Shown here: in pieces, positions 7,508 to 60,200 of the stretch
How positions within the stretch are numbered: the stretch's first letter is position 1
Layout: each line of letters opens with the position of its first letter
From: Asterias amurensis
Taxonomy: Eukaryota; Echinodermata; Asteroidea; Forcipulatida; Asteriidae
DNA length: 64,000 nt
Direction of reading: 5' to 3'
Assembly: GCF_032118995.1 (NCBI RefSeq)
Contig: NC_092666.1
Span: forward strand, 13,280,501 to 13,344,500
Notes under the pieces: model-generated
What the model saw: the letters and a program-made list of their open reading frames with translations, nothing else
Databases searched by the model: none
What the model was told of the DNA's origin: nothing
Made by a program: the position numbers and the translations under genes

Positions 7508-8048
7508 CATAGAACGGCTTAAAGCAACATAATGCTTACTAGAATTAGATTACCTGCCAAACAACTATGTCACATGTAACATTAGAGACTGGTATCCTGC
7601 TCATTTCTGTTAATAACATACAATTGTTTAAAAAGCAATATTCTCTGCTTAAAGACACTGACAATATTAGTAATTATCAAAGACTAGTCTTCTCACTTGG
7701 TGTATCTCAACATATGCATAAAAAACAAACCTGTGTAAATGTAAGCTCAATCGGTCGGCAAAGTTGCAAGATAATGAAAGAAAAACCACCCTTGTCACAC
7801 GAAGTTGTGTGCTTTCAGATGCTTGATTTTGAGACCTCAAATTCTGAGGTCTCGAAATCAAACTCATGGAAAATTACTGTTTTCTCGAAAACTACGTCAC
7901 TTCAGAGGGAGCCGTTTCTCACAATGTTTTATACTATCAACCTCTCCCCATTACTCATTACCAAGTAAGATTTTATGCTTATAATTATTTTGAGTAATCA
8001 CCAATAGTGTCCACTACCTTTAAGCAGCTCTATGAAATTGGACCCTGG
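7508..8048. mobile_element. Family F element split by a family A insertion
   Basis: The flanks read TTCATAGAACGGCTTAAAGC on the left and TAAGCAGCTCTATGAAATTG on the right, which are the two ends of a family F foldback. The DNA between them (7649-8023) is a family A element, so A jumped into F. Confidence 0.75.
7649..8023 (+). mobile_element. Family A MITE (TTAA-flanked), nested in family F
   Basis: It starts TTAAAGACACTGACAATA and ends CAATAGTGTCCACTACCTTTAA, with TTAA on both sides. The middle has the family A hairpin GAGACCTCAAATTC..GAGGTCTC, then CACGAAGTTGTGTGC and TTCTCACAATGTTTTATA. Open frames on both strands are a consequence of the palindromic structure and are not genes. Confidence 0.85.
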
Positions 8049-8049
8049 T

Positions 8050-9050
8050 CAAAACAAGACTGTTCATCTCTGTGATGGCAAGTTTGCATCTTTCGTGAAA
8101 ATGTGAAGGCACTGGGGGACTACGGACGGATTACGTTCTTATCAATTTGAGATCTTTGAAAATTGGCCGACTAAAGAACTAACAAATATCTTGGTTCTTG
8201 TAAAATCAAACAATCTTAAAAATTAAAACCATATTTATGTCTTAGGCACCTCAACAATTTAAAAGAAAAATTTTAACGATTTTAAAATAAAAACACATTG
8301 TAAACCTTTGTAATAAGTTTATACAAAATGTCTTATAATGTAGTACACAATATAACGAAAATTCAACTGCTATAAGAGGTGGTAAACACACAAGTACAGA
8401 TACACAAATCTAATAATTAAATATGGATGACGTCATCGTATTTACAAAAAAGAATGACCTTTGACATTGTGGTAGCTAATCATTTGATTGTCTCAAGAAC
8501 AATGGGAATTTAAAATTACTAATTATAATCAAGTAAAAAAAAGGCATCCTTTACAAATATTAGTTTCTCTCCACAAATTCTACTAAAATCATGTATCTTT
8601 AAAAATGTTACTTTAAAACCAATACACACGTACGTGTCCTATTTTATTTACAATAAATATTTAACACTCGTTTCAGACAGGCCTGCCAGAGTTGCACTGA
8701 ACCAAATAGATCAGGAACGACCCTAGGTATACCCAAATTAATGTTGGTTTCAGACAGGCAAACTTAACTAAAACATTTACATTGGGTTTGGCTCATGACA
8801 AGATCGACGTCTGAAACCAAGGCGCTTCATAGTCGTTCCGATTGACTGCAACTGTTGATTTTTCTCTTTCTAGGGAACATCCAGTCACTCCTAACTGTTT
8901 CAGACGTCAAGCTTTTCATGTACTTAATTCAGAATTTAGTTCGGCGCGACTCTGGAGCACCAGTCTGAAACGGGTAAGTGATAAAGGAGACACAAGCTTC
9001 ACAGGGCAACCGCGAAGGTGTCGTCGCCCTCTTGCCAGTGAGATTTGCTT
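8050..9050. other. Interval without a recognised gene
   Basis: AT-rich to about 8,640. It then holds short repeats of GTTTCAGACAGGC and CGTCTGAAACCAA between 8,670 and 8,970, which look like one or two decayed elements. It lies just downstream of the nuclear IkB stop codon and should contain that gene's 3' UTR, which was not delimited. Confidence 0.4.
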
Positions 9051-10486: not shown

Positions 10487-10524
<38 letters not shown>

Positions 10525-13500
10525 TTACTGGGAACATGGGGTTGGCGTTGCTCATAAGAAGTACTCTGACTACCTCTGCACAATTGACCGATTCGCTGTG
10601 TGCCTCAATGGCAACCATCAGGGCAGTCTTACCTACAACGATAAAGAGATTAAAATCAAATCAGGTTAAATATAATTGCAAGACGAGCGTGGATTGTGTA
10701 TTTGTTATCACCATGCGTGACAGATTTTGTGAGCATTCCCACTGCAAAGTTAAAAAACTAACAACCCTTGTGCGACATGAAAGTGATATGACGAATTGGT
10801 AATCCTGATCACCTTAGTTGGACAAGATAGCACCCACAATAGCATGCGCTGTATGGGCATTTTCACCTAAGATGTCGTTCAATAAACAAGGATTCCTTTC
10901 ACACGATGTTGTAGCCCACGTCCTTGGTCAAAACTTCCACTAGTGTAAGATTTTGTCATAGGTCCGGACCTCAGACAAAATGTAGCAATGTTAGACAAGA
11001 TTTAACAAGGGACCATGGACACTCCAAATATTATTGTCCTTTGACAAGAGGTGCATTTTGTAAAAATGTTACAACCATGTTACAATTTAGCAAGGGACCC
11101 TTGCTAAATTGCTCTCGTGTGAAAGGGGCTTTAGGTGTCCGTTACCAAGGAGCAAATACAGTCGTGCCCTTGCCCTTGTAAAAAAAGAAGCATACAGACA
11201 TGCAACCTCATCAAACTTACCGTCAAAGTTGGTTTGGTCAAATAAGGCACTGAACTCCAGGAAGCTGCATCGGCTGTATGTCATACAGCGAATGATGGTC
11301 TAAAAAAAGCAACAAGAAAATAGAACGAAAGTAAGTATTGTTTGAAGCTCTGCATGGTGTGGATAAGTAAGAAAGAAGAAACTATAAATAAATAGTTAAA
11401 GACACTGGACACTATTGGTAGTTGTCAAAGACCAGTCTTCTCACTTCGTGTTTCTCAACATATTGTATGCATAAAATAACAAACATGTGAAAATTTGAGC
11501 TCAATTGGTCGTCGAAGTTGCGAGATAAAAATGAAAGAAAAAATGCCCTTGTCACACGAAGTTGTGTGCTTTCAGATGCTTGATTTCAAGGCGTCAAATT
11601 TTAATTCTGAGGTCTCGAAATCAAGTTAGTGAAAAATTACTTATTTTTCTAAAATTAAGTTTCTCACAATGTTAAATACAATCAACAGCTCTCCATTACT
11701 TGTTACCAAGTAAGTTTTTATGCTTAAAATTATTTTTGAGTTATTACAAATAGTGTCCACTGCCTTTAAAATCTCTCACACAAAAGAGATTTACACATGG
11801 TTGTACCCTCAAGTTCACTGTTTATTTATAGTTTCTTGCTGAGAAAATAGAAACTCTTTTTATAACAAACAATCGTAATGGTCTAAGATTAAACTTAAAT
11901 CAAAACTGACGAAAAAAGTACCAGTTATTCTTTTACATTATGTAAACTACATTTTATTTCGTTTCGGTTTCATTCATCGAAACAAAACGTCAGAACAACT
12001 AAAAACTGGTTATAGAATGGTTAACAGTGAAAAAAATAAATAATAAATAATAATAGCTAATTCTTATATAGCGCATTTCATAACTGAAAGAAATACCAAT
12101 GCGCTTTACAAAAAACAAAAGGCAAATAATAAAGCAACCAATTAACAAAAAACATACTAACAAAAGCATACAAAAGCTAAACAAATTATGCTAAAAAATT
12201 AATTACATTGACAGTTAAAATTAAAATTAATAGTCTTAAATAACACAAATATTGCCTCCATGCCCCCTGGTCATTGCCTTGGTGCCCTTGAAAGGTTCCA
12301 GTAGAAATTTATAATTTCCTCATAGATCGGTTAAAGGAACACGTTGCCTTGGATCGGATGAGTTGCTATAACTGAGCGTTTATAACCGTTTTTTATAAAA
12401 TGCATATGGTTGGAAAGATGTTTTAAAAGTAGAATACAATTATTCACACAAGTTTGCCTCAAAATTGCGTGGTTTTCCTTTTACTGCCAAACTAACACGG
12501 TCGGCCATTTATGGGATTGACTCCCATAAATGGCCTACCGTGTTAGTCGACGAGGTTAAAGGAAAACCGTGCAATTTCGAGGCATGTTGGTGTGGGTCAT
12601 TGTATTCTACTTTTACAACATCTTTCTACCCATATGTAATTTATACAAAACACAAACGCTTTTCAAAGACCAACTCGCCCGATCCAAGGCAACGTGTTCC
12701 TTTAAATGCCTTGGTGCCCTTGCCCTTACCTTGACGGCCTCTGTATATCCCATCATAGCCGCAGCATGAAGGGGCGTGTTACCGTCCATGTTACCGATTC
12801 CCAGGTTGGCACCGGAACTTATTAGGCTCTGTGTAAGGATGTCCAACTTGCAAACCACGGATAAATATAGCGGAGTCTGTGGAGTATAAAAATTACACAT
12901 ATTATTTCAAAATGACTCAAAATCCACAAAAAGAAAATTTCATACAACTGCAGAGGCACAAAATGTAGCTATTAAAAGCTTAAAGGAACATTACAGAATT
13001 GGGTTCTGCTAGCAAGAGAAATTGCTTGCAGTGTAAGCATTTTATGTAATCCACCATATACATCAACTGACAAACCTGTAGAAGTTTGGGATCGATCGGA
13101 CATCCAGGTCACGAGAAAATAGTGAAAAAATGATTACACGTTTTGCATGAAATTGATGCAAACACAAAAATGGAATCAAACGCTCACTGAGCGATAAACT
13201 CCAAACGCAAAGTTAGATTACTTATTTCTCATCAAATATGATATTTCAGGCAGAAATAATTCAAGGGATGTTTTCTACTATCATCATCATTAGATCGTGT
13301 AAGTTTGATGTAAATCTGTGATCTTCATCAAAATTATGAAGTCCTGAAGTCTTGTAACATTTGAGTGAGAAAGTATTACTTTCTCGAAAAAACGTTACTT
13401 CAGAGTGAGCTGTTTCTCATAATGTTTTATTGTATCAACAGCTCTCCATTGATCGTTACTAAGTAAGTAATGATTTGAGGCCCATTGGCCAGGGATAGTA

Positions 13501-16500: not shown

Positions 16501-19500
16501 CTTCCCATCCTTGGAGACTTCCTTCAAAGGATCTTCACTCTTCTTTTCTTCGGTTTGCGATTCATCAAATACTTGCTCTTCCCGGGGCGACTCCTTGCAG
16601 ACTTGCAGCGCTGCCGGCGCACTGACCTTGCGAGTGGGTAAGTGCGTTTCTTTCGTCTCGCAAGAACTAGAGACGCTCCTCTGTTTTCTTACACGAAGCT
16701 CTTCAACATCCAAAATCAGTAATTCAAAGATCTCACACTCTGATTTTATCTGTCCATCAGTTTTAGTGGCCTGACGAGGCTTCGCATCTCCAGAGACTTT
16801 AAAGTCCTTTATTTTTCCAATTTTATGATCTTCACGCTGGAGATGTCTGTGGACTGAAAGATGTGCTTCTTTTGCCATCTTAGCTTTTGCCTCCTCTATT
16901 GTCCGTCCGACAATGCTTTTTTTGTTGTAACCATGGTGATTCGTCTGAAGCTCTCCGTCAGTAGGAGGTGGCGACTGTGTCGCGGAGGAAGGGTTGCAAG
17001 GCATTTTGACTGGATGCTCCGCCTTACCTGCATTGAGAAATTTCAAAAGATGAAAAAAATAAGTGAATTAACTAAAATGAAGTGCTCACAGATTTCTTCA
17101 TGACAAAAGAACAACTAGTTGGTATGACACTGAGCCCTCTGGAATTGCAAGGGTCGTGGGTTTGAATCCCACCTGAGTAATATGTCTGTCATTTTTTCAC
17201 AGAACTTGGGAAAGTACTGAGTATACATGTACAGTGCTAACACACATCGGCGCAATGGGTGAAAAACAAAAATTAATATTTATTATCCCCGATACAAATT
17301 TAACATTATTTAACACATAGTTTATTTTCCAGTTAAAACTAACCTTACCAAAATAGTTCATTTCAGGATTAACAATCAATTTCCAGTTACCTATGTGGGA
17401 CTATTTTCATTTACAAAAAACAATCTATGACTCAATATTTAAGTTGTAGCCTGAACAGATAATAATCAAAGTGGTAACTCCAACAAGTTACTCTACATTG
17501 TGTAATACACCTTTCGTACAAAGTAATTTAGACTACTACAATCACAAACTGCCACACTTCAAAAACGACACACTCACATTAAAGGAACACGTTGCCTTGG
17601 AGCGGACGAGTTGGTCTATAAAAAGCGTTTGTAACCGTTTGTTATAAAATACATGTTGGAAAGACGTTTTAAAAGTAGAATACAATGACCCACACAAATT
17701 TGCCTCGAAATTGCGTGGTTTTCCTTTTACTTTGCGAACTAACACGGTCGGCCATTTATGGGAGTCAAAAATTTGACTCCCATAAATGGCCGACCGTGTT
17801 AGTCGATGAGGTAAAAGGAAAACTGTGCAATTTCGAGGCATGTTTGTGTGGATCATTGTTTTCTACTTTTACAACAACTTTCCAACCAAATGCATTTTAT
17901 AAAAAAACAGTTACAAATGCTTTTTATAGACCAACTGTCCGATCCAAGGCAATGTATTCCTTTAAAAGCAGGTTAAAAGAACTGGCTCTGTTCAAGGCTG
18001 TTCTGATAACAGGTTTCAAGCAACATAGCTGACGCCTACAACGAATTATTAAAATAACATCAGAGCATCAGAGCAATCATGCGTCATTGTCACTCATGCT
18101 CCAGGGTTTGCACAGGGTATGCCCCTCTGAACAACCTCACAAATGTAGACAATTTGACCCCCCCCCCCAACAAAAAACGACAGCCTACTTCCTTGAACGC
18201 TTCACAAACAGACAAAGATCACCTCTGTATGAGACAATTGAACCTTTAATCCCTGGACCATAGAGGGACTTCCCCTTCCAAAGCCCTCTCTAAAATAGTA
18301 TTATCAGCATGTGAATGTAAGGCTAGAGTTGGGAGGGAAAATCCACAAGATAGCTGAAAGCTGAACGTATTTACTGGACCAGAATGTTGCTTAGTACTTA
18401 TTTAACTTCCAGCTTACATACCTGCATTGACCCAGGGATAATATAGATCTAGTCGTTTCTTTTAAACTACAGCCCTACTATGACACCCCACTTCCCATCA
18501 TAAAGCCTCTTCCCATAAAGCCAGCTGTGAGGTTAATGGTTTTGTTGTTTTAATTTAGGCCTGTACCAACCCTGACAGGGCCCTGTTCTTATGGGATCTT
18601 CCAAAGACTGACCATGTAGCACGTCATGTAGCAATCCCAACTGTGTGGTTGGACCTGAAACTATTGAGCAGATTATTTGTTGTACAACCTTTGGAATCTG
18701 CTGATAAGAAGCGCTTACCAAAGAAGGAAGTGAGATTGGGCATTGAAACAAAATCCTTTTAAAGGCAAAGTGTCCTTTGCGTTTTGGAACTGTTTGTTGT
18801 TTTAAAGACACTGGACACTATTGGTAATTGTCAAAGACCAGTCTTCTCATTTGGTTTATCTCAACAATGCACAAAATAACAAACCTGTGAAAATTTGAGC
18901 TCAATTGGTTGGCAAAGTTAGTGAGATAATAACGAAAGAAAAAAAAACGCCCTTGTCACACGAAGTTGTGTGTTTTTAGATGGTTGATTTCAAGACCTCA
19001 AATTCTAAATCTGAGGTCTCGAAATCTAATTCGTAGAAAGATACTTCTTTCTCGGAAACTAGGTCACTTCAGAGGGAGCCGTTTCTCACAATGTTTTATA
19101 CTATCAAACATCTTCCCATTACTCGTCACCCAGTAAGGTTTTATGCTAATAACTATTTTGGGTAATTATCAATAGTGTCCACTGCCTTTAATCCTACATA
19201 AAACTAACCATTTTATTTCAAAAGGTAATACATGTATATTTCTCAAAATGTACAAAGCGTGCTGCACGCCGTAAATTAGTTCTTAGGATTGTTTCGTCTG
19301 ACATTTACAAAATGTCTAGTGTGGTTACATTACATGTTATGAAGAAAGAAATCTATCAGCATGGGGGGTATACTGTGGAATTGAAAAAGATTAACGTGTA
19401 TTGGACAATTGTGAAAAATTAATCAAGCATTATGTAGGCCTAAAGTCACGATTCCTTAATTATTTCTGGCTTTATGCCAACATTGAAGGCAGACAAAGTG

Positions 19501-21298: not shown

Positions 21299-21493
21299 AA
21301 TGAAGGTTTGCAACCGGAACTAGCCTTAATATAACACCGAAGGAAATGTACCTATACGAAACCTGTATCAGTGAACAAAAAAATGGTTTTCAGACGCCCA
21401 AACACGGAACTATCCAGTGCTGAGTTGTTGCAGGTTGTGCTTTGCATGCTGTAGTTTTGTGATGACGCAGATACAAGCTAAGCGCCTCATCTG

Positions 21494-25140: not shown

Positions 25141-28100
25141 TTAGGAATTGTCCATTGCTACACTCACTATCTCAATGCCGTGTTGCTGTAACTGTGTCCT
25201 CAACAATGTGTTTTCATTCTTCAACTCTTCCACCTGTTGCCGTAGTAACTCGTTATCGACGGAGACACGCTCGTGCTCTTTCACCGTGTCTGCCATGCGT
25301 GCGTTGGAGGATCTTAATTCATTGATGAAGTCGCAGGTTTTTGAGAGAATACCACCTTTGCTCTGGATTAAAAAAACAAGCAAAAAGTCAGCAATCAGCA
25401 AAAATATTCAGATCCACTGACCAAGTCAATGTATACCTACTGGCAAAATTTTAACCCTACAAAATCAGAGTTGCCTTAGGGTGATCCCCTGGCAAAGATA
25501 CTGCCAAAAAAGGGAAACTGCCAACATAGGGCTAGAACAATAATAAAAATAGTAATAATAATAGTTATTCAGGCAATCACATTTACAAGCTCAGTTGGTT
25601 GAGCACCGGCACGTTAATCCGGAGGTCCTTTGTTCAAATCCTGCACTAGTAAATTTATTCTTTGTTCAACTCAAAATCTCTTTGTAAAAAACGGCTGCAT
25701 ACCTGTGACTTGGACTGGTCCGTTGCACAATCAGGCACGAGTTTTGAAAGTCTGACAATCCAATTATTTATCTTGTCTCGTCTTCTTCGTTCCACTTCAT
25801 TATGTGTCGCTCTTCGTCTGTCGTCTCTTGCAGTACGTGCTCCGTCGATTTTACTGTTGGAATAAAGTGAACACAAATCAAAAAAATAATCATAGACAGA
25901 CTAAATAAAGTGTTCTGAGACACAGAAATTGAAATGATTTAAAAGTTCACAGAGGGTTCAGCTCTTGCAGTTCGCGCTCCATTGATTCTACCGTTAGAAT
26001 AAATTGAACACACAAATCAAGAACAACATGCAGAAACAAACCAAAAGCAGTTTGAGAAACTGAAATTATTTTGACTTAAAAGCACGTGTTTACAGCTGTA
26101 TACTCCCCAGGGAGCTGAGATGGTTTAAGAAATGAATTAAATGACCCAGTGACAAAGGGGGAGCTTTGATGAAGAGTTAAATCTTACGGAGCAAAGGAAT
26201 GAGTTCGAGGAGCTATTGTTCTCTGTGCAGCTCCTTGGAGGACATCTTGTGGTGACATCATCACGTAGAACTGACCTGTGAATAAATGACATAGTTGGTT
26301 GTTACAAACAGAGCATAACAAAAAGAGGCCAGCCGTCGATTTCACCAAACTCTTCCTAACTTAGGATTAATCTTAGGACTTAGGACAAGTTCAGTTCCAT
26401 ATCCAAATACGTAGGACGTATTAAACCCATCCTAAGTTAGGACGGGTTACTCGTCCTAACTTGAGATAGGATTGATCCTAGCGTTTCGTGAAATCGGCCG
26501 CAGGGAGAGCAAAGACGTTAGGAGTCGGGGAGAGGGTAGACACCATGGCTAGATTTTTGGGGGGAAACCCCACAAGACCACAGAATTGAAGTGAGAAGAA
26601 AAAATCCCGTTATACAGATTAAGATTTGAACTGTTTGAATTTGAAAAAGCACTACGAGAAGATTGATCTCATTTGTATGTATTGTGGGCAAGTAGTCTTC
26701 AATAATTAACAGAATTATATTTATCAAATGGACAGTGAACATTTGAATGCAAACACAATACTGCTGGACTTGTCCAGTTGGGTGTTTACTGGCACTGCGA
26801 TAAAATCACTGGCCTCAGGCGTCTGATCCAGAGTTAAAGGAACATGTTGCCTTGGATCGGGCGAGTTGGTCCATGAAAAGCGTTTGAAACCGTTTGTTAT
26901 AAAATCGATATGGTTAGAAAGATGTTTTAAAAGTAGACAGGCCTGACACTTCACGGAGGCAACGAAGGCGATTGCCTCCGTTGCCCCTTGCCATTGCCTT
27001 GGTGCCCTTGAAATGCTCCAGTAGAAATTTACAATTTCCTCATAGGGTGCCCTTTGCCAAAGAGAAAATGCCTTAGTGCCCTTGCCCTTTCAAAAACGAA
27101 GCATACAGGCCCGAGTAGAATATAATGATCCACACAAACAAGCCTCGAAATTGCGTGGTTTTCCTTTTACTTTGCATACTAACCTGGTCGACCATTTTAT
27201 GGAGTCAAAAACTTGACTCCATAAAATGGCATTCCGTGTTAGTTCACAGCATATAAAAAAACCATGCAATTTCGAGCCATATTTGTGTCGAACGCTATAT
27301 GCTACTTTGAAACATCTTTCTAACCATATCGATTTCATAACAAATGTTTCAAACGCTTTTCCTGGACCAATTTGACCGATGCAAGGCAACGTGTCCCTTT
27401 AATCTCGAGCCCTGTGACAAATGTGTGAGGGGGGTACGAGGATTGAGCCTTACCTCCAGCTGGGTTGGCGTTGGCTAACGTCGACTCTGTCTGCTGGGTG
27501 ATGACGGTAGGATCGGTAGCGACGGCCGACGTTGGGAAGTACGTGAATCTCGTCTCACCAGATTGGTTATCCGATGTCGGGCTGTCTCCATTACTAAACG
27601 GACTCTGGATGACCTGAACGACATCAGGAGAAACGGCATTAAAAAATGGTATCGTAGAAAAATTACACCAGTGACAAGAAATAGCGGCACTTTTTGGTTT
27701 TGGCTTTAAGGACCTTGTCACACGAGGCAACTTTTACAGGCAGCTTGGAGGCAACCAACTGCACTGCATGCTACGTGTACCGCATCACTTTGATAGCATG
27801 TGTAATATTTCAAACAATGTCTAACGAGCCCCAAGAAAGGTATGTGAATTATCAAATGTGAATACGCCTTTTCTTTTTGAGATTGCCTGGAACTGGTTGC
27901 CTGTAAATTGCCTCGTGTGACCTTATTTGATTGTGAAAAAGCACTATATAAAAACCCTCTACCTACAAAGTTACCCCTACTATTTTTAAATACTTGATTA
28001 TGCAAAAGTATCTTTTACTCATTATGTTTTAAAAATATCTCTTGGTTTCTCTACCCTATACCATGTATACCATCTACATGTAGAAACACTGTTCCAAAGT

Positions 28101-31100
28101 TGAATGGCCAGGCTTAATTTTATCATCTACTGTAATACATTTGACAAATCAACCAAGAAACCCTGAGAACAAGACTTCACCTCCAATTACTGGGGGTGCG
28201 TTCGATAAGCTTCCCTGGGTCGACCCCGCAGTGCTCACTCGGTTGAGCCCCTGACAAGAGCTTATTGAACGATCACACTTGCCCTCTCGTGGTGACAACA
28301 TGCACCTCAGGTCATTCCCAAGTGACCCACTCTACCAGCAGGGCACTGGGGGCTGACCCGGGTGAGCCCATTCAAAGCTATTCGAACGTACCGGGGCAGA
28401 CCGGGGTCGACCCAGGGAAGCTAAACCAACGCACGCACCATAATTGTAAACTATTGAGAATTTTGCCCAAGTGACAATCATTTTATCAATAAACTTGTAA
28501 TGGCCACACACAGTGGGACAAGATTGGCCGATGGAGTTTCAAAACACGAAGTATCTTCATCCAGTTTAACAATAATTAAAGCTGCTGTTCCTCAATAAAA
28601 AATATCAAGAATGAAGTATGACTCATTAGAACTGATCTTGTAGGAAACTAGTCTTCAATCTGTCTTGGATGCCTTCAAGATAAGCCTGGGAGTTCCTATG
28701 AGGCATCACACAGCTATATTTAGACGGGAAAGGCAGATTTCCTATGTATTGTCCAAAATATCCTAAATAAAAATCTCGTTTTCCCAAAGAAGGGGGGAGG
28801 GGGTTCTCCACAGTACTTTTAAGGTAGAACAAATTTGTGAGACTCTTAAATAGCTTATGTACCCAAATAGAATGATGACTTAAGTTATCTCTGAAATTTT
28901 AACTGTTTTTTTTGCTCTTTTTTTTATACTTTCGGTTGGGTCCGCCACACTTGAGTTCTTTTTGTATTTTAGGGCCCCGGCTGGTCTGGCACAATGCTAA
29001 AACTATCAAACTTTGGGCAGTGGCTAGTGGGTATTTCAAGTCCTGACTGGACTTATTTGGTTAATGGACTTATACTGGTCCACTGTTAAAATACTGGACT
29101 CTGGCCAGGGCCCAATTTCATAGAACTGCTGAGCACATAAAATTTGCTAAGCATGAAATTTCTTCCTTGACAATAACAGGATCACCAACCAAATTTCCGC
29201 GTGATTTTCAGGATAAGCAAACAGCAACTGAATATCAGTAACAAGCAATATGCAACAAATGGAAATATGGTTGGTAATCCTGTTTTTCAAAGGAAGAAAT
29301 TTCATGCAAAGCAATTATTTTTGCTTAGCAACTCTATGAAATTGGGCCCTGTGATCTAGTAGGTATATCAAGCCCTGACTGGACATGTTCACTTGTGGGT
29401 TTACTGGCCCAAACCTTAAACTACTAGATACTGGCCAACTTTCCAGTGGGCATTTTACTCTTGTTCAGCTGATGAAGGGTTACTGACCTAATGCCAAAAC
29501 TTTTGGCCTCCACCCAGTGGGTCAGTGGCTATTTCAAACCCATTACTCATGACACAAATTAGACCAATTTCTGACTCCTGTCTTCATAGCAAGACAAGTA
29601 CACCGTGGACACGCCCACATTTCTCCCTTTCCATTTTACTTAAAGGAACACGTTGCCTTGGATTAATCGAGTTGGTCTTTGAAAAGCATTTGTAACCGTT
29701 TGTTATAAAATGCATATAATTAACACACAAGAATCACTCGAAATTGCGTGGTTTTCCTTTTAACTCGTCGACTAACACGGTTGCCATTTAAGGGAGTCAA
29801 ATTTTTGACTCCCATAAATGGCCGACCTTGTTAGTTCGCAAAGTTAAAGGAAAACCACGCAATTCCGAGGCAAATTTGTGTGGATCATTGTATTCTACTT
29901 TTAAATCATCTTTCTAACTATATGCATTTTATAACAAACGGTTACAAACGCTTTTCAAAGACCAACTGGACCGATCCAAGGCAACGTGTTCTTTTAATTT
30001 AGTCTGGTTGTGAAGCCAAGGAGTCTCAGAAAAGCAAACTTGATCACTGTAGTAGACAAGAACCCAATGGGGAGAGGAAAAGAAAGGAAGAAAGTTCCAA
30101 TTCTAGATTTGGAAGAAAAACCCAATAGAATTACTCTAGAGAAAACCGACGTAGTCAGGTAGGGACTCAAAACCCAATTCACTTAGTACCCCCGGAGAGA
30201 TTCGAACCAGAGTCCTAGAAGTAGAAGGCAAGGAAAAAGAGCACTACGTCAACCCGACCTCCCTGACTCAACCACTGACAGAAGGAAAGAAACTTATGAT
30301 CCCAGCTTTCAAAGAGAGCAAAATAAAAGTGTAAATTTCTCCGGTGGCGGATCAGTGGTTGGGTGGAGCATGTTGTTATGAATCACCATGTGACTGTAAT
30401 TTGGCAGGAAAATGTCCGTCCATCAAAATAATTGGGCTTTTCCCGAAAGGCCTAAAGCGGAGATATCGCAGATGAGGTTTTGGTTTTTTAATGAGATGGG
30501 ATTTTCATACAAGAATAGGTGATTAAGTGATTTGGATCTTTGACTTATCTATGATAACATGTTTGTTAGATAAAAAAGTCATTGTGTAATGAACACTCTA
30601 GTCAATGGGATTTGAGGCATTGTAAGGTGAAGTATCAATGTAAAACTGGTTTGCGGTAACATCATCTACTTGCTAGGTAGGTTTTGTTCCTTAAACAGAA
30701 CTTGTCTTGCATTCTACTATCGCAGAGTAGATTTTACGGAAATTGGAAGTAGATAAAGCCTTACGGCCATTTGCAGCCGCTCTGGGCCTTTCTGTACGAG
30801 TCATTTGATACCATGATGGTCTCTTAAGGGTGAAGGGAAGGGGGAGGAACGGGAGGAGAGGGGAACTAAAGGGATATAGCCCCCGTGCATTGATGAGTTG
30901 TGCTCGCTTGAAAGGCTATCATTGGCTGAGAGTCGTGCGCAGCACGCACACGCGTGTATTGTTTGTCATCAGAGATGGTGGTCAATGACGTCATATGCAA
31001 TCCATCTTCTTTTACTTCATGCAAGTCGCCAGACACACAAGGCCTGAAGGCCACTTCAAGGTGTGGGCTACAATTATTTTTGTCCAGAGGCCGTTGCCAC

Positions 31101-46650: not shown

Positions 46651-46659
46651 AGACAGACA

Positions 46660-48200: not shown

Positions 48201-48210
48201 CTTACTCCTC

Positions 48211-51200
48211 CTACATGGCTTGTTGGTAGAAGAGAACGTATGCATAGGAACTCGGGACATTGGTCTCGGTGATGGTATCAACCCTGCAAAACACACACAC
48301 AAAAAAAACATTAATTTTTCTCTGTGCAATATTTGTCTCTGAGTTGGAAGTTGCTTCGCAGGCTGTGGGAAGCCCCAACTTAGGAACCTTAAGATGTGGG
48401 TTAACAAACCCTAATCATATTATAGTTCTCCACACTAAATATAAGTCGTGGTTTGGCTTCAAATCAAAGACTTGATTCAACCAACAATTTAATTCCATCA
48501 ATCCAATCTTAGTTTAAAGGCAGTGGACACCAACCTGGACACTATTGGTAATTGTCAAAGACTAGCCTTCACAGTTGGTGTATCTCAATATATGTATAAA
48601 ATAACAAACCTGTGAAAATTTGAGCTCAATCTGTCATTGAAGTTGCGAGATAATAATGAAAGAAAAATAACCCTTGTCACACGAAGTTGTGTGCGTTTAA
48701 AAGGTTGATTTCGAGACCTCAAGTTCTAAATCTGAGGTTTCGAAATCAAATTCATGACAAATTACTTCTTTCGCAAAAACTATGGCACTTCAGAGGCAGC
48801 CGTTTCTCACAATGTTTTATACCATCAACCTCTCCCCATTACTGGTCACCAAGAAAGGTTTTATGCTAGTAATTATTTTGAGTAGTTACCAATAGTGTCC
48901 ACTGTCTTTAAGGGGCCAGGCTCAATACCAGAGTCCTAAACACTTGGATATAACCAAGAGCCAAGTACTAGGGAGCAGATGCACTGCATGTTGGATGGGG
49001 GCACCCGACCCACCCAAGCCATGGGGTTAAAGAGGTACCAGCCCCTCTTGGGGATGCAAAACGGGGAGACACCACCGGCAAAATAAGCCAATTTTATTAG
49101 CGTCTAAGCAATTTTGCATTCAGCTACAATAGAGTGGAGTATTTTGGAGGTTATGATGGGACAGCCTCTGGCCATTTCGGTGGGCAGTGGGGGCCTGCAA
49201 TGGGTACCAGTGAATCCCCTCACTTACCTACTATCGTCATATATATGCCACTTGCTGGTGCTCAGATGCTTGGCATATGCGATGTAGTGACCCCCCAACA
49301 TTGATCCTGAATGCTGTGAGACTCCGCCCAGATTGTAGTCCCCATGTCTACGGTTCAAATCTCCCTCACCTGGGAACAAAAATTTTAAAATATCTTGTCA
49401 GTTAAAAAATATATGTGAGAAGACATGTTATTAAACAAAAAATATTTTTTAGGGGAAAGTTGTTAGTTGCAAATTCTAGTTATATTTTTGCTTTTGTTTT
49501 TTAGGAAAGAAACAAGAGTTCTGTTTTCGCACAGCTGTAACCAATAACTGTTTCAGTCATTGGCCTGTTAATTTACCAATGGCCAATTCAACCAAAACAG
49601 TTATTGGTTACGACCGCCAAAACATAACCAAGATACTAGTTTTGCTGGCATTAAAAGCAAATCACTGGTTGAGAGGTTAATCAAGTCAAAAGTCAAAGGC
49701 TGAGTTTATGTTTTAAAGGCAGTGGACACTATTGATAATTACTCAAAATAATTATTAGCATAAAACCTTAATTGGTAACGAGTAATGGGGAGAGATTGAG
49801 AGTATAAAACATTGTGAGAAACGGCTCCCTCTGAATTGAAGCAGTTTTCGAGAAAAAAGTAATTTTCCACGAATTTGATTTCGAGACCTCAGATTAAGAA
49901 TTTGAGGTCTCGAAATCAAGCATCTGAAAGCACACAACTTCATGTGACAAGGGTGTTTTTTCTTTCATTATTATCTTGCAACTTCGACGATCAATTGAGC
50001 TCAAATTTTCACAGGTTTTTTTGTATGCATATGTTGAGATCCACCAAGTGAGAAGACTGGTCTTTTACAATTACCAATAGTGTTCAGGGTCTTTAAATCA
50101 AAAGCTTAAACCAGCTGAAGTGGTAGTTAGAAAATTAGAAGTGTTTGATTCTTAGCTCCAAGGGTGTACTAGGTTTTTTTTTTTCCTTGAGTGTTAAGCT
50201 GTCACCTTCAAGGAGGTGGTCCCAATCGTACAAGGGTGGCTGGCTGTACGTTTTCCACACTGTTTGGAACATGTCCACCTTGCTGGCCTCGATGTGGCTA
50301 GCACTACCAGACAGTGAGTACATGCAACGGGTAGCTGTGGGTTAGCGTGCACAGCGGAGAGGATGGATGAAGGGAACGAGAAGTAGGAAGATGGAAGAAA
50401 CATGAATGGTGGGGTCAGAGGAAAACATGCAGGGACCATTTTCATAAAGCTGGTAGGCACGACAAGCTTGCTAAGCATAGCATATAGTATGGTTTGCGGT
50501 AACACCATGTAATGATAATCTCTAATTGAACTGGGGTGTTTCCTTTCACTATGCTTTTATAGCAAGTTTGTTGTGCTTACAGGTTTTATGAAATTAATCA
50601 TGTTACGGAGTTAAAAACATAAAGGAAATGTAACAAGCAGATACATATATTCTGGTGAAACAGCAAGAAAATAAACATAGCAGAAAAATGGAACATTGGG
50701 ATTATAATGAGAGATACAATGAACTGAGAAAATGAGTGCCAGAAATTAACACAAACTCAAAACAAAACAAACTAATTATCATGCAAATCGTTAGCAATAT
50801 AGAAAATGACAGCTAAATTCTGCTTAGATTATTTTAGTAATGCTGGGTCAGATTTTACAAAACACCAAGGCTTAACTTAAAGGGGCTGCGTCTTGGGCTG
50901 GGTGAGAGTTCATAAATCAAAGTGCAGCCACAGGCGACATAGCCCCTTTAAAGATGAGCTGTCAATATTGGCACAGGAAGTTTAAAATATTTTACCCCTG
51001 AACTCAGAAGCTGATACAGCATTAAATTAAAAGTCAAATCCTGCTTTATTGGAGACATTTTGCGCTAAACAAGTTTTGTGTGGACCAGACACTTACCTGT
51101 TGTTTCCGAGCAGTACTTTGTCATGTCCAGCCCCTGTACAGGGAAGTTGATGTGAGTGGTCAACTTGGAGCGCAGACCGCTGAATCTTTTCAGATCTGAG

Positions 51201-54200
51201 ATGTTGATTGGTCAAGGAAGTTAACTCTCGTTTAAAAACTGACAAACCACACTCTAATCATCAAAACCTGGGCCCATTTCATAAAACTTGTAGCACAATT
51301 ACTTGCTAAGCACAGAAAACTCTTGCTAAGCAAAAATAGGTTACCAGCCAAACAACCGTACATTTACCCAACTCACTTCTTGCTAAGCAATGGAATTTGC
51401 TAAGCAGAGTTTTCTGGTTGAAACAAAGGAACCAAACTGAGCTAACCACAAAAAAGGATACGAAGCACAAGATGTTTTGGAAAGCGCTGGATTGAAAACC
51501 ATTTGATGAACGGACACTTCTTCTTGCATTTGTCACATGTCTGTTGAGAAAAAAGAAAGAAAAGAGACTCATGTTCTACCCCTCCTTCTACCTGACCATT
51601 CAATTCCCACATCACATTTTGTTTAGGCCCCACCCCCTCCCGAACCCATCGTCGGTAAGGACCCCGTCCTGTACTACTTTGTAGGCCTACCACTGGTTTT
51701 TTATAATTTGTTTTTATTATTTAAAGGATTCTGGAACTTTTTCAAAATATCCACAGATTTACATTTAACTTTAAGTTATATTTATACAGTTTGTAGACAA
51801 TGATAGTGGAAAGCTTCCCTTCAAATATTACTTACTGAGGTGCTGTAGTTGAGAAATGAGAAAAACAAGTTACAAAAAAATGTTCGTCTCAGTGAGATGA
51901 AAATATTTTAGCATGTAAAAACGTATTAACCAGTTATGATATTACACCATAACATACCATAACTGGTTAATACGTTTTTACATGCTAAAGCTAGGACACA
52001 AATTATTTTTGTGACATTGTTTTACTTATTTCTCAAAAACTACAGCACCTCAGTAAGTAATATTTCAAGGGAAGCCTTCTACTATCATTATCTTCAAAAT
52101 TTTTAAGTTTAGTGTAAATCTGTGGACAATGTGTTTTGTTCTAGAAAAAAAAGTACATAGACCCTTTAACCTATACTCGGTATAGTCGGTACTCAGCATA
52201 CTCAGTACTTTACAGGCTTCCGTGAAAGGCAAATCACTCGAGTGGAATTCGAACCCACGACTTTTGCATTGCTAGAGCAGATGTCTTACTGACAGCCCAA
52301 TGACCTACCCCGGTGGCTAGAGGCCATCCAAGGCAATGATTTTTTTACCGATGCAAAAAATTACACCTACATTGAATCAATCGTTTTGTACTGTCCAACT
52401 CGTTGACCTTCACCCTAACCGTTGAGACCTAACCCCGTAATGTTGAGGGACTTACCACCATGTTTTCACCATCCAGTACCTCAGCTTCAGTGAACTTATT
52501 CAGACAGTCCTTGATGTCAAAGGAGTCAGGGTTCTCCCGATCCCAGCTGGTCCTTCTCTGGAAACCGCTTCCTTTCCTCTGAAATCATAATAATAATAAT
52601 AATCAAAACAAAGTTAATACTTGTATTTATATACCTCATATATAGAATCCTCTAATTGGTTAAACATTTGGGCCTAGTCATTATTTTGTAATCACCTTGG
52701 GCCTTTAGTTTTAACTGTGCCCTTCATAGCAGTCAATATTTCTATATCATAAAAGTGTGATCACAATGTGATTTTCCATGTGTCATCGCCTTGTGGTTAA
52801 CAGCACCAACTTCTGGCGTTTTTTGATCTGCAGAGTGTGGGTTCGAATCCCAGTCATGGCACAATTGTGTCTCCGAGCAAGATAATAATAAACCATCATT
52901 TCTTTGTCCTAGTCCTAGGATTGGTAGTGAATGTGAGGTGATATTTTGGCTGGTAACTCTGTACTAGTAAGCATATTTTGGTTGTGCTTAGCCACTTCTT
53001 GTGCCTAAAGGAACATTACAGAATTGGTTTTGCTAGCAAAAAAGTTGCTGGCAGTGTAAGCACTTTATCCACCATATACATAAATTGAAAAACCTGTAGA
53101 AGTTCGAAATCGATCGGCCATCTGGGTCATGAGAGAATAGTGAAAAATCGATTTCAAATTTTGCATTGCATGAATGCCAAAACAAAAACGCATAAAACGC
53201 TCACTGAGCGATAAACTCCATACGCGAAGTTAGATTATTTATTTCTCATCAAATATGACATTGCAGACAGAAATATTTCAAGGGATGTTTTCTACTATCA
53301 TCATCATTAGACCGTGTAAGTTTTATGTAAGTCTGTGATCTTCACAATTTTTGTTTCATACCAATTCTGTAACATTCCTCTAAGCAGCTCTATGAAATTA
53401 GGCCCTGGATTGAATCAAACTTGCCTCTGGTACAGGAACCGAGAGATCCCAGAAGATGTCAAAGGTCACGGAGCGACTCTTGCAGGTTTGACATTCCAAG
53501 GTGCTCTTGAGTTGACCCACAAAGATACGGGAGAAGATGGAGTTATCCCGGGCGCGGTAGCGTTCCCAGTAGATCTCGGCCTTCTCCTCCTCACTATGGA
53601 AACAAGGTGAATCAACGAGTTGTCAGTATTACAAAAGACCTGATGCACATGATGTCATATGAGTAGGGCGCCCTCACCTAGAGGTCAAAAAGCGGCCGTT
53701 TATTGGCCAAACCTGTGCGCTGCGCGTACAAATCTGTACGTTTTTATTGTTTTGTCATTGTTTTACCTCTAAGATGGTGGCTGGATGACGTCAAAGCATT
53801 AAAGGCAGTGGACACTATTGGTAAGTGTCAAAGACTAGCATTCACAGTTGGTGTATCTCAACATAAGCATAAAATAACAAACCTTGTAAAAATTTGAGCT
53901 CAATCAGTCATCGAACTTAATAATAGTAATGAAAGAAAAAACACCCTTGTCACACGAAGTTGTGTGCATACAGATTAATAACACCAAAACTTGTATAGCG
54001 CCCTAATCATGTGTAAACATGCTCTAGGGCGCTGAACATGGAAAAATAGACAAACTAAAACATAAGAAAATACTGAATTATAACAACGGGAGTAAACATT
54101 CTTAAAAACATTCAACAACAAACTTAATCAATAGAAATCCTAAAGTATTAAAAAAGCAATTAGGTCTAAAATCTCAAATGCAAAACATTGTTACACATTG

Positions 54201-57200
54201 CAAGCATTAATAGATGGTTGATTTCCAGACCTCAAGTTCTAAATATGAGGTCTCGAAATCAAATTCGTGGAAAATTACCTCTTTCTCTAAAAATATGGCA
54301 CTTCAGAGGAAGCCGTTTCTCACAATGTTTTATACCATCAACCTCTCCCCATTACTCGTCACCAAGTAAGGTTTTATGCCAATAATTATTTTGAGTAATT
54401 ACCAATAGTGTCCACTGCCTTTAAGGTCTAGAAGGGTTTTCAAAAGAAACCAGTGATCTCTTCTACCTCATCCACTTGACAGTTTCAAACTTCCCCCTAC
54501 AAACAGCATGCTGCTCTACTAAGCAACATGTACGCAACATCAAAATACTGTCATCATCCCCAAATCACACACTTCTCAACATAATAATATTAATAATAAC
54601 CGTATTTATAACGTGCCTTTTGCCAAAGGATACAAAGCGCCAAGTATTATTACTGCAAGGAGTGGGGCGAATTTTGAGATATAAGAACTAATCCTTATGT
54701 AACGGTTTACAAGGTGCTGTGGCGCAATATGCTGCCAATCCAGCCAGGAACACCGGGGCGAACCCCTTCTCTTTTCGATAAGTGCACTGGGTTCTTTTAC
54801 ATGTACATGCGTTAACACAACACATGGGACCAACAGCTTTACATCCCATCCCAAGGACGAAGCAATGGTTATGTGTCTTGCTTAAGGACACAAGTGTCAC
54901 GGCTGGGGATTCGAACCCACACTCTACTGTTGAGAAACACCAGAGTTTGAATTCGGTGCGCTTAACCACTCGACCACGACACTCTCATAATCAGAGATCC
55001 TTCATATCATCCTGTGCTAGGCTCTGGAACTCACTACCTGCTTCTGCCATCGTAGCCCAATCAGCACAGTCTTTCAAATCCAGTGTACGAAAATTGCTTA
55101 ATAACATGCTTAAAATTTATGAAATCTAGCTGTAGTTCAACTATACTACAAGCTATTGTTCACTTAAAGTAGGAAAAAACAATTATAACAAAAATTGTAT
55201 TGTGACATCACACAGTGCCAAGCACTTACAGGAGTGCGTTTTGGCGACCCCAACCAAAAACTGTTTCAGTTGTTGGTTGTTGGTTCTGCTGTTCAGACTG
55301 AACAACAACCGAGTTGTGAGCTCGGTTACCGTTTTGGTTGTGACGTCAGAAACAGTTTTTGGTTGGGGTCGCCAAAACGCATTCCAGGTACGGTATCTGG
55401 GCCCAAACTCATGGGAAGCAGGAAATTCCACACTTACGTCCTGCGTATTTCAAGAGTAAGCAGGGAATGTTTGTTTGTTTGTTTGTGCACGTGTGTACTC
55501 CATGCTACTTAGACTTTCTTCACCTTCTTTGACAATTGCAGAAAGTGTACCCTGCTTTTAAAGGGTCTATGTAACTTATGTAGGACAAAAAACACAATGT
55601 CCACAGATTTACACTAAACTTACACAGTTCGAAGATAATGATAGTAGAAAGCTTCCCTGAAAATATTACGTGCTGAGGTGCTGTAGTTTTTGGGGAATGA
55701 GTAAAACAAGGTCATGAAAATAATTTTCGTCTCATGAGACGAAAATTATTTTAATCATCTACAAACATATTTTCATGACATTGTTTTACTCATTTCTCAA
55801 AAACTACAGCACCTCAGTAAGTAATATTATTTGAAGGGAAGCTTTCCACTATCATTATCTTCAAACCCTGTAAGTTTAATGTAAATCTATGGACATTTTG
55901 AAAAGGTAACCCTAAGTTGATTTGTTACATATCTTTCTTTCATTCGTCCATTTTATTTTTATAAAAACAAAAATTTCAGTTGGTAGTAACTTACGAGATA
56001 TCATCAGGAACGTCAGCCTCTTTAGATTTCTTGCTGCCAGCAGCAGTGTTGGTCTCATCATGAAGTTCACTCAGTAGGTAACGGAGGAACTCCTGTGCAT
56101 CTTGCTGCCTAGAAGCAGAGAAGAGAAGAAAACAAAAACAAAAAAACAGTCAGACTAGGCCCGGAATTACTTAGCAGTTGATTGGCCTACCAGCGCCCAA
56201 TTTCATAGCGCTGCTTAGCAGCCGATTTTGTGCTTACTCTCCGATTTCCATTTCATAGCGCTGCTAACCCTAAGCACAAGAAAAGGCATGCTTACCTTCC
56301 GGTGCTTACCGCACGAAAATAAACGACGTCACAATGCAAATCCATGGAAAACGCACAATATGACCGACCAATTTTTCTGATAACCGGTGAAATAGGCTAA
56401 GGCTTAAGCAAATTTTTCTGCTATACAGTAAGCATGCAAATTTGCTTACCGTTAAGCAGCGCTATGAAATTAGGCCCAGATGACCACACTGATCATTTTC
56501 TTATTTGGCTGAACACATAATTTGCTTTAATAAATTAAACTTAAAAAAAAAGAAAAAAAAGTCCCTTCAAAAGTTTCTCATTTACTCTAAAGATTTTACA
56601 GTGGAAGAAAACCCCTGGCCTGTCAGGCCAGCTGAGTGGTCTAGCGGTCTCAAACACAGGCTCAAGTTCTGTTGTACTACCATTATATAATTTTGAAGGG
56701 AAAACTTTCAAAAAATTAGTTTATACCTTAAACAGCTGCAGATTTCACAGGTTTGTTATTTCATTTATACAGTTGATCACACAAAACATTAAAACTATCA
56801 GAGGCTATTTTGTCAGCTCTAACATACAGCATTCTGCTTTCTGCTATTAAAGGCAGTGGACACTATTGGTAATTGTCAAAGACCAGTACTCACACTTGGT
56901 GTATCTCAACATATGCATAAAATAACAAACCTGTGAAAATTTGAGCTCAATTGGTTATCGAACTTGCGAGATAATAATGAAAGAAAAAAACAGCCTTGTC
57001 ACACGAAGTTCTGTGCGTTTAGATGGTTGATTACGAGACCTCAAGTTTTAAATCTGAGGTCTCGAAATCAAACTCGTGGAAAATTACTTCTTTCTCGAAA
57101 ACTATGGCAAGAGGGAGCCGTTTCTCACAATGTTTTATACCATCAACCTCTCCCCATTACTCGTCACCAAGAAAGGTTTTATGCTAATAAACTTTTTGAG

Positions 57201-60200
57201 TAATTACCAATAGTGTCCACTGCCTTTAAAGTAGGAATTCTCTGTGCTAAGCAAAGTTATGAAACCATGGGCAACTATCCTTGTTGAGGCATGGTGGACT
57301 ATATATGAGTGCCCTGTCTGGTTTGGGTGTATACATACAAATTTACCCTAACCAAACCAGGGCCCAATTTCATAGAGCTGCTATGCACAAAAATTTGCTA
57401 AGCATGAAATATCTTCCTTGATAAAAACAGGATTACCAACCAAATTGTGTTGCATATTGCTTGTTACTGGTACTCAGCTGTTGTTTGCTTATCCTGAAAA
57501 TCTAGTGGAAATTTGGTTGGTAATCCTGTCTTTATCAAGGAAGAAATTTCATGCTAAGCAAATTTGTATGCTTAGCAGCTCTATGAAATTGGGCCCAGGT
57601 GTTAAAGTACAATATGTCTTCCCTATCTGAAAATGGCTATGCAGCTAAACCTTAAAAAACAGCACCCTGCTTTCTGCTAAGTAGGAATTTCCTGTGCTTA
57701 GCAAATTTAAGAAACCATTGGCAATTGTCTTACTTGCTTCCACGGAACTGCTTTGAGATCTTCTGAAAGGCCAAGTGAAGCTTGTTGGGTGCCACAGACT
57801 CTCTCTTCTTGGGCTCCCACAGCTGCTTCATTAAATCCGCAAATCCTGAAGAAAAAAAAATCAGTTTTGGTTTAGTCCAAGCTCCAGCCTACACGCTACA
57901 CTGAGCTAAACTTAAGCTTATTCTGTTCCTGTTCCCTCCTTCGTGTACCATTGAGCCAAGCCCAACTACAAGTTAATCTCCAAGGCAGACTTAAGCAGCA
58001 TCGAGAAACAGAGTCCAGCATTCTCCTGAAGACAATCAGAGCGTACTGATCGAAAAGTTGAGGTGTCAACCATCAGTTCTTTTCAGAACCAACACTTCTC
58101 AAAATAGACATGGTGCTTTCCCGATGAGCCATTTGCGAGTTAGATTTGAATATTGTCTGGTACCTGACATTTCGATTTCTAGCAGAGTCTTTCTCAAATG
58201 ACAACATAACACAATACACGTAAACAGGTATATCAAAGCTGCTAACACTTTCAACTTGCAATAAACAACACTGACCTAATGAGCCATATTTGCTCAAAAC
58301 AGACTTTATTACCACTACTCTGTAACTAAAGCAAGTAATTTTACCAGAAATTCTTTAAATCTAACTTGCAAATGGCTTTCAGATGGTAGCCTAGGGGCCT
58401 TTTTTATTTAGAAAAAAAAAAAAATTTGTTGGGGGGGGTGGGGGGCAGAAGGGCAATCACTCATTTTCAAAGAACCTTTTGACTGGGAATTTATAAAATA
58501 AAATAATGGAGACCTTACCTTTGATGAGGTTTCCCTCACCGGCCGATTTGCGATTGATGTCTCTCAGATAGTCACCAGAGAGGAGGTAATCCTTCAACTC
58601 TCCGATCTGGGCAAGACACTGCAAGATGGAATTCATGTAGCACTGTGGACGCAAGAACAATAACAAACAAAAACAGGAAGCCATGTTAGAGTGAGTGATT
58701 TCTCTTTTGTGTAGCCTATCCAAATGATACACCAGATAAATGTGTCAAATGCACACAACCATATGGTGCTCTGTAGGTGTTTGGCATTTCAGATTCTTCG
58801 ACTCCAATTTGAAGTGACTACAAAATAGAAACCCAATTTTATTTTAACATCAATGGAAAGATCCGACGGAAAGATCCGATAGAAAGATCTGATACTTCTC
58901 TTTCCAATGATTGTAAGCTTGGGTATTGAGGGTGAACATTAACAAATACAGTTTGAACAAATGGCCTTTGTACTCGAGCGACTCTTGTGTGTGTTTTTAT
59001 CTTGGGCAACTAAAGTCACCATCAAGGCCCAAGCAGGGTATAGTGCAGACAACCTCGTCCCCATGGTTTACTTTATTTTCAACCATGTTTACAGGACAGT
59101 TCTTTTCAGAGCTGAGAACTCTCCCGAACCTCCGATTATCTACTCCGCGACAGTAGAATAAAGCAAGACAGTTCTCTAAGAACAAACTCTACCTGGCAAG
59201 AAGATACACACATGGTGTTACCGCAAACCAAATATACATGTTTACAATAGTAACCCCTGGGATGGAAACTCCTTACGACTTTACATTAGAATATGTTCCA
59301 TATTCATAGGTACAGCCAGCCGCCGGCAACCAACAATGTATAAAAAAGCTATTAAACTTGGTACCGTACTACGAGATTATGACGAAGATGTGAATTTCAA
59401 AAAGGAGCCAGACTATTTTAGTTTGCATACGGATCCCCAAATTTTGGATATGCGAATGATCCAATACCAGGGTGAGAGAGCGGTCAACCTTGTAACCGCT
59501 CCACACACCCTGGGGATGAGGTTGAAGTGCAGTCGTACATGTAAAGCACCATTGCAGCTGAAAGGGTGAAGCACCTTATAAAAGCATTTATTTTATTTTG
59601 TATGTTTCAAAGATGTTCCGGCTACTTACGGTGTTGCCCAAGTTGATCAGACCAACCAAGCCTCCTTTGTCAAAGCCGCTGGAGTTGTTTCCTGTTCTTC
59701 CCTGGAATTAGAACAAACGATAGGACGATCCACTTCAGTGATTTACCACAGATACTCCAAATAGTCCTGTTTCTATTTATTTTGTGTTCAAATTTTGACG
59801 TTGAGTTTGATAAACACCTTTCAATTATATTGAGCAATGAAGTACAGTAGGCCTATACCCATAATTATAGACCATGTGACCTTTGTTTACAACAAGTGTG
59901 ACCTTGTACATTCTTGAAGTATTCTGGCAGGCACTGTACTACACTGGTCCAATGGGAAAGTTAACATTTTGTGTCATAATTTCCACATAAATCCAAGAGT
60001 TATGAAAGTAAAAGCTGGACAAGTTTTGAGATGTGCCCCCTTTTATCATATCAAAAGTTGATAAGAATTAGACAGTGCCAATCTCCATAAAATATAAGAT
60101 TTTATGATTTCTTCCATTAGGATGTGTACAAATTGTGCCTGCAGGAAGTCCAGGCTCTGTGGCTCTTTTGTAAACATGTGATGTCATAGGTCACATCGTC

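What the first reader, a model, noticed from the sequence alone, without database searches (positions are those of the whole stretch)
7649..57229. Four MITE families share TTAA duplications and TTAAAGG ends: a Kolobok/T2-like superfamily
Families A (TTAAAGGCAGTGGACAC), B (TTAAAGGAACACGTTGCC), C (TTAAAGGGTCTATG) and D (TTAAAGGAACATTACAG) differ inside. All begin TTAAAGG or a near variant, and intact copies are bounded by TTAA on both sides. The Xenopus T2 MITEs of the Kolobok superfamily have ends TTAAAGGRR and TTAA duplications. piggyBac also uses TTAA, but its ends usually start CCC. A shared end across unrelated interiors suggests that one transposase family mobilises all of them in this genome.
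Basis: partly seen in the sequence, partly recalled or inferred. Interest (0 to 1): 0.75.

Follow-up and report, generated by a model that had tools for sequence, protein, structure and literature searches.

The report
Kolobok-type TTAA MITEs in a starfish
The short repeats in this starfish window look like small, gene-less jumping elements of the Kolobok kind, present in very many copies, and the same genome holds long Kolobok elements with the same kind of ends and target; it is a known kind of element on a large scale.

Summary
Of 14 two-ended copies of families A-D in the window, 13 have TTAA on both sides; the D copy has CTAA. The interiors are not all unrelated: A, D and C share sequence; only B stands apart. 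The window lies in a 491.5-Mb assembly whose contig sizes match Asterias amurensis. There the A end AGGCAGTGGACAC occurs 37,358 times, 31,864 (85%) of them after TTAA; B has 18,391 and D 1,549 exact TTAA ends (C not counted). A scan of 264 kb that assumes no family found 30 TTAA-bounded inverted-repeat pairs; all 60 ends start with two purines (55 AG), none with CC. A further TTAA family (T) has members of about 0.8 kb with only a THAP frame. Kolobok/T2-like is well supported. Not shown: an autonomous element with the ends of A, B, C or D, hence not that one transposase moves all four. piggyBac genes are present too; their ends could not be read.

The parts
7649..8023 (+). Family A copy, TTAA on both sides; its right flank is a copy of a GGGCCC..TTTCATAGAGCTGC repeat
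11396..11769 (+). Family A copy, TTAA on both sides
18802..19191 (+). Family A copy, TTAA on both sides
35842..36248 (-). Family A copy, TTAA on both sides
48514..48911 (+). Family A copy, TTAA on both sides
49713..50096 (-). Family A copy, TTAA on both sides
53799..54424 (+). Family A copy, TTAA on both sides, interrupted by an unrelated insert between about 53976 and 54202
56847..57229 (+). Family A copy, TTAA on both sides, perfect inverted repeat of 28 bp counting TTAA
12331..12705 (.). Family B copy, palindromic over its whole length (79%), TTAA on both sides
17579..17965 (.). Family B copy, TTAA on both sides
26834..27402 (.). Family B copy with an insert, TTAA on both sides
29640..29997 (.). 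Family B copy, TTAA on both sides
51721..52169 (.). Family C copy, largely palindromic, TTAA on both sides (left end AGGATTCTGG, right end AGGGTCTATG)
55558..55907 (+). Family C copy with one TTAA end only; other end truncated, its place approximate
53005..53383 (+). Family D copy, CTAA on both sides, 23-bp inverted repeat at 87%; right flank is a GGGCCC repeat copy
12980..13288 (+). Family D copy with one TTAA end only
50877..50951 (.). Possible 75-bp element, TTAA on both sides, ends AGGGGCTGCGTC / AGGGGCTATGTC

Best explanation
Families A-D are non-autonomous Kolobok-superfamily DNA transposons (T2-like MITEs) of a starfish. Shown: inverted ends starting AG(G), TTAA at the borders, very high copy number (A, B, D counted), and long Kolobok elements with the same kind of ends and border in the same genome. 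Inferred: a Kolobok transposase binds the ends through its THAP domain, cuts the MITE out, inserts it at TTAA with a 4-base stagger, and repair duplicates TTAA. Inferred too: A, C, D and the sampled family E are branches of one MITE lineage whose ends have drifted apart, B is a separate lineage, and each family was moved by a Kolobok lineage that recognised its ends.
For: A end: 37,358 copies genome-wide, 31,864 preceded by TTAA; reversed-pattern controls 5 and 0. B end 18,391; of 35 facing pairs among the 100 listed places 16 are exactly 390 bp. Full copies in 264 kb: A 12 of 15 and B 7 of 9 with TTAA on both sides. Scan over 16 palindromic 4-mers: TTAA 30 inverted-repeat pairs, next AATT 11; all 60 TTAA ends start with two purines (background 35%), 55 with AG (background 9%), none with CC (background 3%); they come from about six families and are not independent, and C and D are not among them. 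Long elements: L032 (7,982 bp, TTAA both sides, 221-bp inverted repeat at 97% counting TTAA), L034+L038 (about 8.36 kb, TTAA both sides, ends AGACC), L036 (about 8.33 kb, CTAA left, TTAA right, ends AGGATCCCAGA). L032 and L036 carry THAP, GDGRxDSxG, [ST]DRHxQ, [FY]DVWH, H2CH and SSLESFH in this order; in L034 all but the last were found. Kolobok is described as TTAA target with RR..YY ends (PMC9587614, passages), T2-MITE as TTAA plus AGGRR, and ten X. tropicalis full-length elements as AG-ended (PMC6004289, passages and section 18).
Against: No autonomous element with the ends of A, B, C or D was found. The A and B profiles do not match the three long Kolobok elements (C and D were compared only with the ends of L032 and the left end of L034, no hit better than E 0.05). 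One unoccupied relative of the site of copy 56847-57229 (window 57653-57724, 82% over 76) has no TTAA at the insertion point. The ends of L034 (right) and L036 rest on short inverted repeats (12 of 14 and 13 of 16 bases) and not on a comparison of copies. L036 has a stop in one exon frame. PF20700, tried first as a Kolobok profile, gave nothing here or in 14 controls.
Confidence: 0.9

Rival explanations
1. piggyBac transposases, which also use TTAA, move these MITEs.
For: piggyBac transposase is present: 70 matches to PF13843, several in open frames of over 500 residues. The TTAA target fits.
Against: None of 60 TTAA inverted-repeat ends in 264 kb starts CC. PMC9587614 separates Kolobok from piggyBac by its RR ends (passages). 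AG ends are found on the Kolobok elements of this genome.
Confidence: 0.06
2. TTAA is part of the element end and not a duplicated target.
For: One unoccupied relative without TTAA.
Against: The D copy carries CTAA on both sides, L036 CTAA on one side. The A copy 7649-8023 and the D copy adjoin a repeat; at 49 places with that flank the four bases before it read TTAA 12 times and CTAA 7 times, the A and D copies being one of each, and CTTA 15 times. L032 and a B-like end share one TTAA. No further repeat is seen outside TTAA in the 24 A and B copies printed (by eye).
Confidence: 0.04
3. One single Kolobok transposase moved all four families (a narrower form of the best explanation).
For: Common AGG start and common TTAA border.
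Against: Kolobok lineages 36-54% alike to L032 in the catalytic exon coexist, and those whose ends were found have different ends. A, B and C differ after AGG; B and D share AGGAACA and then differ.
Confidence: 0.15

Closest known systems
T2-MITE family of Xenopus (Kolobok superfamily)
   Same: TTAA border, AGG start, several subfamilies, abundance, Kolobok transposases with THAP in the same genome (PMC6004289: abstract, passages, section 18)
   Different: Other host phylum; A (AGGCA) and both C ends (AGGAT, AGGGT) do not fit AGGRR; B is a palindrome over its whole length and C over most of it
Full-length Kolobok elements of Xenopus tropicalis (Table 5 of PMC6004289, seen as a passage)
   Same: 6.8-13.9 kb, TTAA, AG ends; THAP, DDE and H2CH motifs are described for these transposases
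   Different: In the starfish elements the frames lie in separate exons; no Xenopus sequence was held, so there is no direct alignment
KolobokP (PMC9587614, passages), reported from three echinoderm classes
   Same: Kolobok superfamily, echinoderm host
   Different: KolobokP has long terminal direct repeats, and its solo repeats have duplications of 3-5 bp; L032 has long inverted repeats and TTAA
piggyBac MITEs
   Same: TTAA target
   Different: Ends set apart from the RR ends of Kolobok in PMC9587614; no CC-ended TTAA inverted-repeat pair in 264 kb

Membership tests
Kolobok superfamily (MITE families A-D) | TTAA 4-bp target duplication | tested here: met
   Full copies exact on both sides: A 12 of 15, B 7 of 9, C 1 of 1, D 0 of 1 (CTAA); A end 31,864 of 37,358 after TTAA. 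That TTAA comes from the target rests on a few repeat-internal sites, one of them contrary
Kolobok superfamily (MITE families A-D) | Termini 5'-RR..YY-3' | tested here: met
   A and B: all ends in the scan RR; C and D ends start AGG
Kolobok superfamily (MITE families A-D) | Shared ends with an autonomous Kolobok element | tested here: inconclusive
   No match of the A or B profile to three long Kolobok elements; only a small part of the genome could be read
Kolobok superfamily (elements L032, L034, L036) | DDE transposase with C/DxxH and a zinc finger between DxxH and E | tested here: met
   L032 and L036: D, D, DVWH, H2CH, E in order; L034: the E motif was not found. Read exon by exon, not from a spliced protein; L037 showed none of these catalytic motifs
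Kolobok superfamily (elements L032, L034, L036) | THAP domain | tested here: met
   PF05485 E 6.5e-17 (L032), 2.2e-14 (L034) and 1.4e-11 (L036)
Kolobok superfamily (elements L032, L034, L036) | Placement in a tree of Kolobok transposases | not testable with these tools
   No Kolobok protein set was held; no catalytic exon matched a Pfam family above its cut-off
T2-MITE | TTAA plus terminal AGGRR | tested here: inconclusive
   B and D (AGGAA) and E (AGGGA) fit; A (AGGCA) and both C ends (AGGAT, AGGGT) do not
piggyBac | CC-type ends (taken from the finding and recall) | tested here: not met
   0 of 60 ends; ends of the piggyBac copies themselves were not read

The most novel reading that the evidence does not exclude
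Family T is a miniature Kolobok element that spreads while encoding only the THAP DNA-binding domain, and its protein competes with or retargets the full transposase, so that a non-autonomous element carries its own regulator. T has 3,951 exact TTAA ends genome-wide. Of 33 facing pairs among the 100 listed places, 20 are 547-614 bp and 4 are 802-811 bp. The 809-bp copy in L031 holds a THAP frame 52% identical over 124 residues to the THAP of the long element L032.
Probability: 0.15. Interest if true: 0.6.

Novelty: new member of a known kind. Interest (0 to 1): 0.42.

Why it matters
It ties a very abundant repeat of a starfish genome (A-like sequence covers 5.86% of 200 kb taken at 20 places, B 1.32%) to a transposase superfamily, and suggests that the T2-like state known from frogs has a parallel in echinoderms. 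It gives coexisting Kolobok lineages and MITE families in which end recognition can be tested, and a THAP-only element that may regulate them.

Tried and rejected
PF20700 as a Kolobok profile (a recalled guess): no match in this genome and none in 14 controls, so uninformative. Long-frame THAP genes L029 and L030 were fetched as transposase candidates; by eye they look like THAP plus DDE_Tnp_4 proteins (recalled, not scanned); only their TTAAAG sites were listed, and they were set aside. L033, a second THAP locus, gave no recognisable transposase. L037 gave no ends. Solved structures: no meaningful match to the L032 catalytic exon. A nested insertion of A into B was sought by its two junctions: one right junction on C16, 27 places for the left junction, none on C16, so nothing shown. 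Autonomous partners of A and B: not found. Searches of the open library for Kolobok with sea star, Kolobok with echinoderm, MITE with Asteroidea and TTAA and sea star with MITE or Kolobok-T2 listed no title on starfish TTAA MITEs; apart from PMC9587614, none of the listed papers was opened.

Full report
What was checked. TTAAAGG is in excess in the window: 37 places, 17.14 expected, none of 100 shuffles reached 37. Counting copies with both ends in the window, A has 8, B 4, C 1 and D 1; 13 of these 14 have TTAA on both sides and the D copy has CTAA on both sides. Counting the four border bases, the A copy at 56847 has a perfect 28-bp inverted repeat; D has 23 bp at 87%; B is a palindrome over its whole length (79%) and C over most of it (73%).

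Correction on interiors. A profile of 17 A copies matches D colinearly (profile positions 57-335, E 1e-7; the one-ended D copy E 4e-13, with a further A-like piece beside it, E 5e-23) and C weakly (E 0.0023 and 0.019), and does not match B at E up to 1; the reversed target sequences, included as controls, gave no match. C and D share 103 bp at 74%. A fifth family found in the random sample, E (end AGGGAAGGTACAC), matches A at E 1e-72 and 8e-69 although its ends differ. So A, D and E, and through D also C, look like branches of one lineage with diverged ends; B is separate.

Which genome. The window is G000:C19:13280501-13344500 of a 491,506,623-base assembly in 23 contigs. Contig lengths 38,009,675 and 23,750,475 equal the largest length and the N50 given for Asterias amurensis in PMC10625585 (passages). 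The same passages give DNA transposons as 18.20% of that genome.

Genome-wide ends. AGGCAGTGGACAC occurs 37,358 times, the reversed pattern 5 times; with TTAA before it 31,864 times, reversed 0: 85%. TTAAAGGAACACGTTGCC (B) occurs 18,391 times and TTAAAGGAACATTACAG (D) 1,549 times. C was not counted. In the 100 B places listed, 35 pairs face each other within 1.5 kb and 16 of these are exactly 390 bp; in the first 60 of the 100 A places listed there are 9 such pairs, 8 of 377-397 bp and one of 208 bp. In 200 kb from 20 places A-like sequence covers 5.86% and B 1.32%; in the window 8.31% and 2.32%.

Border. In 264 kb (window plus the 20 stretches), full copies with TTAA exactly on both sides are 12 of 15 for A and 7 of 9 for B; the other five have one changed side. 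The BLAST rule of that count missed five of the eight two-ended A copies and one of the four B copies of the window. A scan that assumes no family, over all 16 palindromic 4-mers, found 30 inverted-repeat pairs bordered by TTAA, against 11 for the next, AATT; 5 of those 11 and all 6 GGCC pairs belong to one other repeat, GGGCCCAATTTCATAGAGC. All 60 TTAA ends start with two purines and 55 with AG; among all 4,070 TTAA sites of the sample, both strands, 35% and 9% do so, and 3% are followed by CC. The 30 pairs come from about six families and some share an end, so they are not independent. C and D are not among them: the two ends of C are too unlike, and the D copy has CTAA.

Empty sites. Joined flanks of 35 copies (19 A, 10 B, 1 C, 1 D, 3 T, L032) were compared with all held sequence; five gave hits across the join. 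The A copy at 7649 and the D copy at 53005 adjoin the GGGCCC repeat. At 49 places with that flank the four bases before it read CTTA 15 times, TTAA 12, CTAA 7 and others 15, the A and D copies being included. Of the six relatives printed for the A site (of 25), the most similar (window 24221-24261, 88%) has one TTAA and the others have TTA or a variant. Against: the one unoccupied relative of the site of copy 56847 has no TTAA (window 57653-57724), which may be a loss or an insertion at another sequence. The other two gave no usable site (L026: its own border and a weak hit; the B copy at 12331: relatives with other sequence at the join). This is support of moderate strength; orthologous sites could not be examined.

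Transposases. THAP (PF05485) gave 150 scored matches of 417 candidates. Around one of them L031 holds an 809-bp element, TTAA on both sides, ends AGGCACCTGG / AGTCACCTGG, with a 174-residue frame in which Pfam finds a THAP domain and nothing else. This end (family T, AGKCACCTGGAA) occurs 3,951 times after TTAA. Of the 4 THAP matches on C1 within the listed range of T ends, 3 lie beside T ends. A 444-bp T copy that lacks most of the THAP region is at L026:3670-4113.

Locus L032, read on its minus strand, holds a 7,982-bp element, positions 179-8160 with TTAA included, with 221-bp inverted ends at 97% that start AGGTTATGAG after TTAA. It carries THAP, GDGRADSPG, SDRHRQ, FDVWH, HIQGVHHGHSELYPNCEH and SSLESFH in this order. 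Its end occurs exactly 3 times in the genome, two of them its own. Its catalytic exon finds 19 stretches, among them C2 (54%), C10 (40 and 41%), C18 (40%), C4 (36%) and a damaged 86% copy on C11. The C10 and C18 loci (L034, L035) are 99.2% identical from a common TTAA|AGACCATGC border, with different sequence outside it; L035 ended before the far end, which is taken as AGACCGTACAAAAT|TTAA in L038 because 12 of its first 14 bases agree with the near end. L036 is bordered by CTAA and TTAA with ends AGGATCCCAGA, the best of a scan (13 of 16 bases, next 10), has a stop in one exon frame and a T element inside. L037 gave no ends. A finger between DxxH and the last catalytic residue is described for almost all Kolobok and as absent in MuDR, P and hAT (PMC9587614, passages). 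No catalytic exon matched a Pfam family above its cut-off (at E up to 1, at E up to 0.01).

Rival. piggyBac transposase is also present, 70 matches. The purine ends and the Kolobok elements argue against it for A-D, but the test stays open.

Reading. The MITEs are most likely non-autonomous Kolobok elements; excision and insertion by a Kolobok transposase, and recognition through THAP, are inferred from the superfamily. Which Kolobok lineage moved A, B, C or D is unknown; the source may be extinct in this genome or lie in the part not read.

Noticed in passing
607-748, 1631-1771, 2821-2961: Three U4 spliceosomal RNA copies on the minus strand, about 1 kb apart.
   Followed up: no
34588-34634: Histone 3' stem-loop match just above the gathering score.
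   Followed up: no
9487-9873, 14914-17067, 39163-39792: Minus-strand frames: one with ankyrin repeats, a long one without Pfam match, and one with a death-domain match below the cut-off; may be one NF-kappaB/IkappaB-like gene (by eye).
   Followed up: no
61014-61945: 932-bp array of a 6/12-bp AATAAC unit at 99%.
   Followed up: no
43427-43700: 16-bp minisatellite GACACGCCAAGGCCTG, 17 copies at 72%.
   Followed up: no
44572-46638: Three direct repeats with spacing 705-708 bp (D3 and D4).
   Followed up: no
57356-57600 and 63341-63591: Another repeat with inverted ends GGGCCCAATTTCATAGAGCTGC, about 200 bp (by eye), 49 end matches in the held sequence; two TTAA elements of the window adjoin copies of it.
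   Followed up: partly
L031:1382-2190, L026:3670-4113: TTAA element family T, mostly 547-614 bp, some 802-811 bp; the 809-bp copy in L031 encodes only a THAP domain.
   Followed up: partly
G000:C4:5366808-6505163: Seven THAP matches of the same partial kind (positions 1-62) within 1.2 Mb.
   Followed up: no
54782-55129: Frame that resembles the C-terminal part of a LINE reverse transcriptase by eye (recalled); no Pfam match.
   Followed up: no
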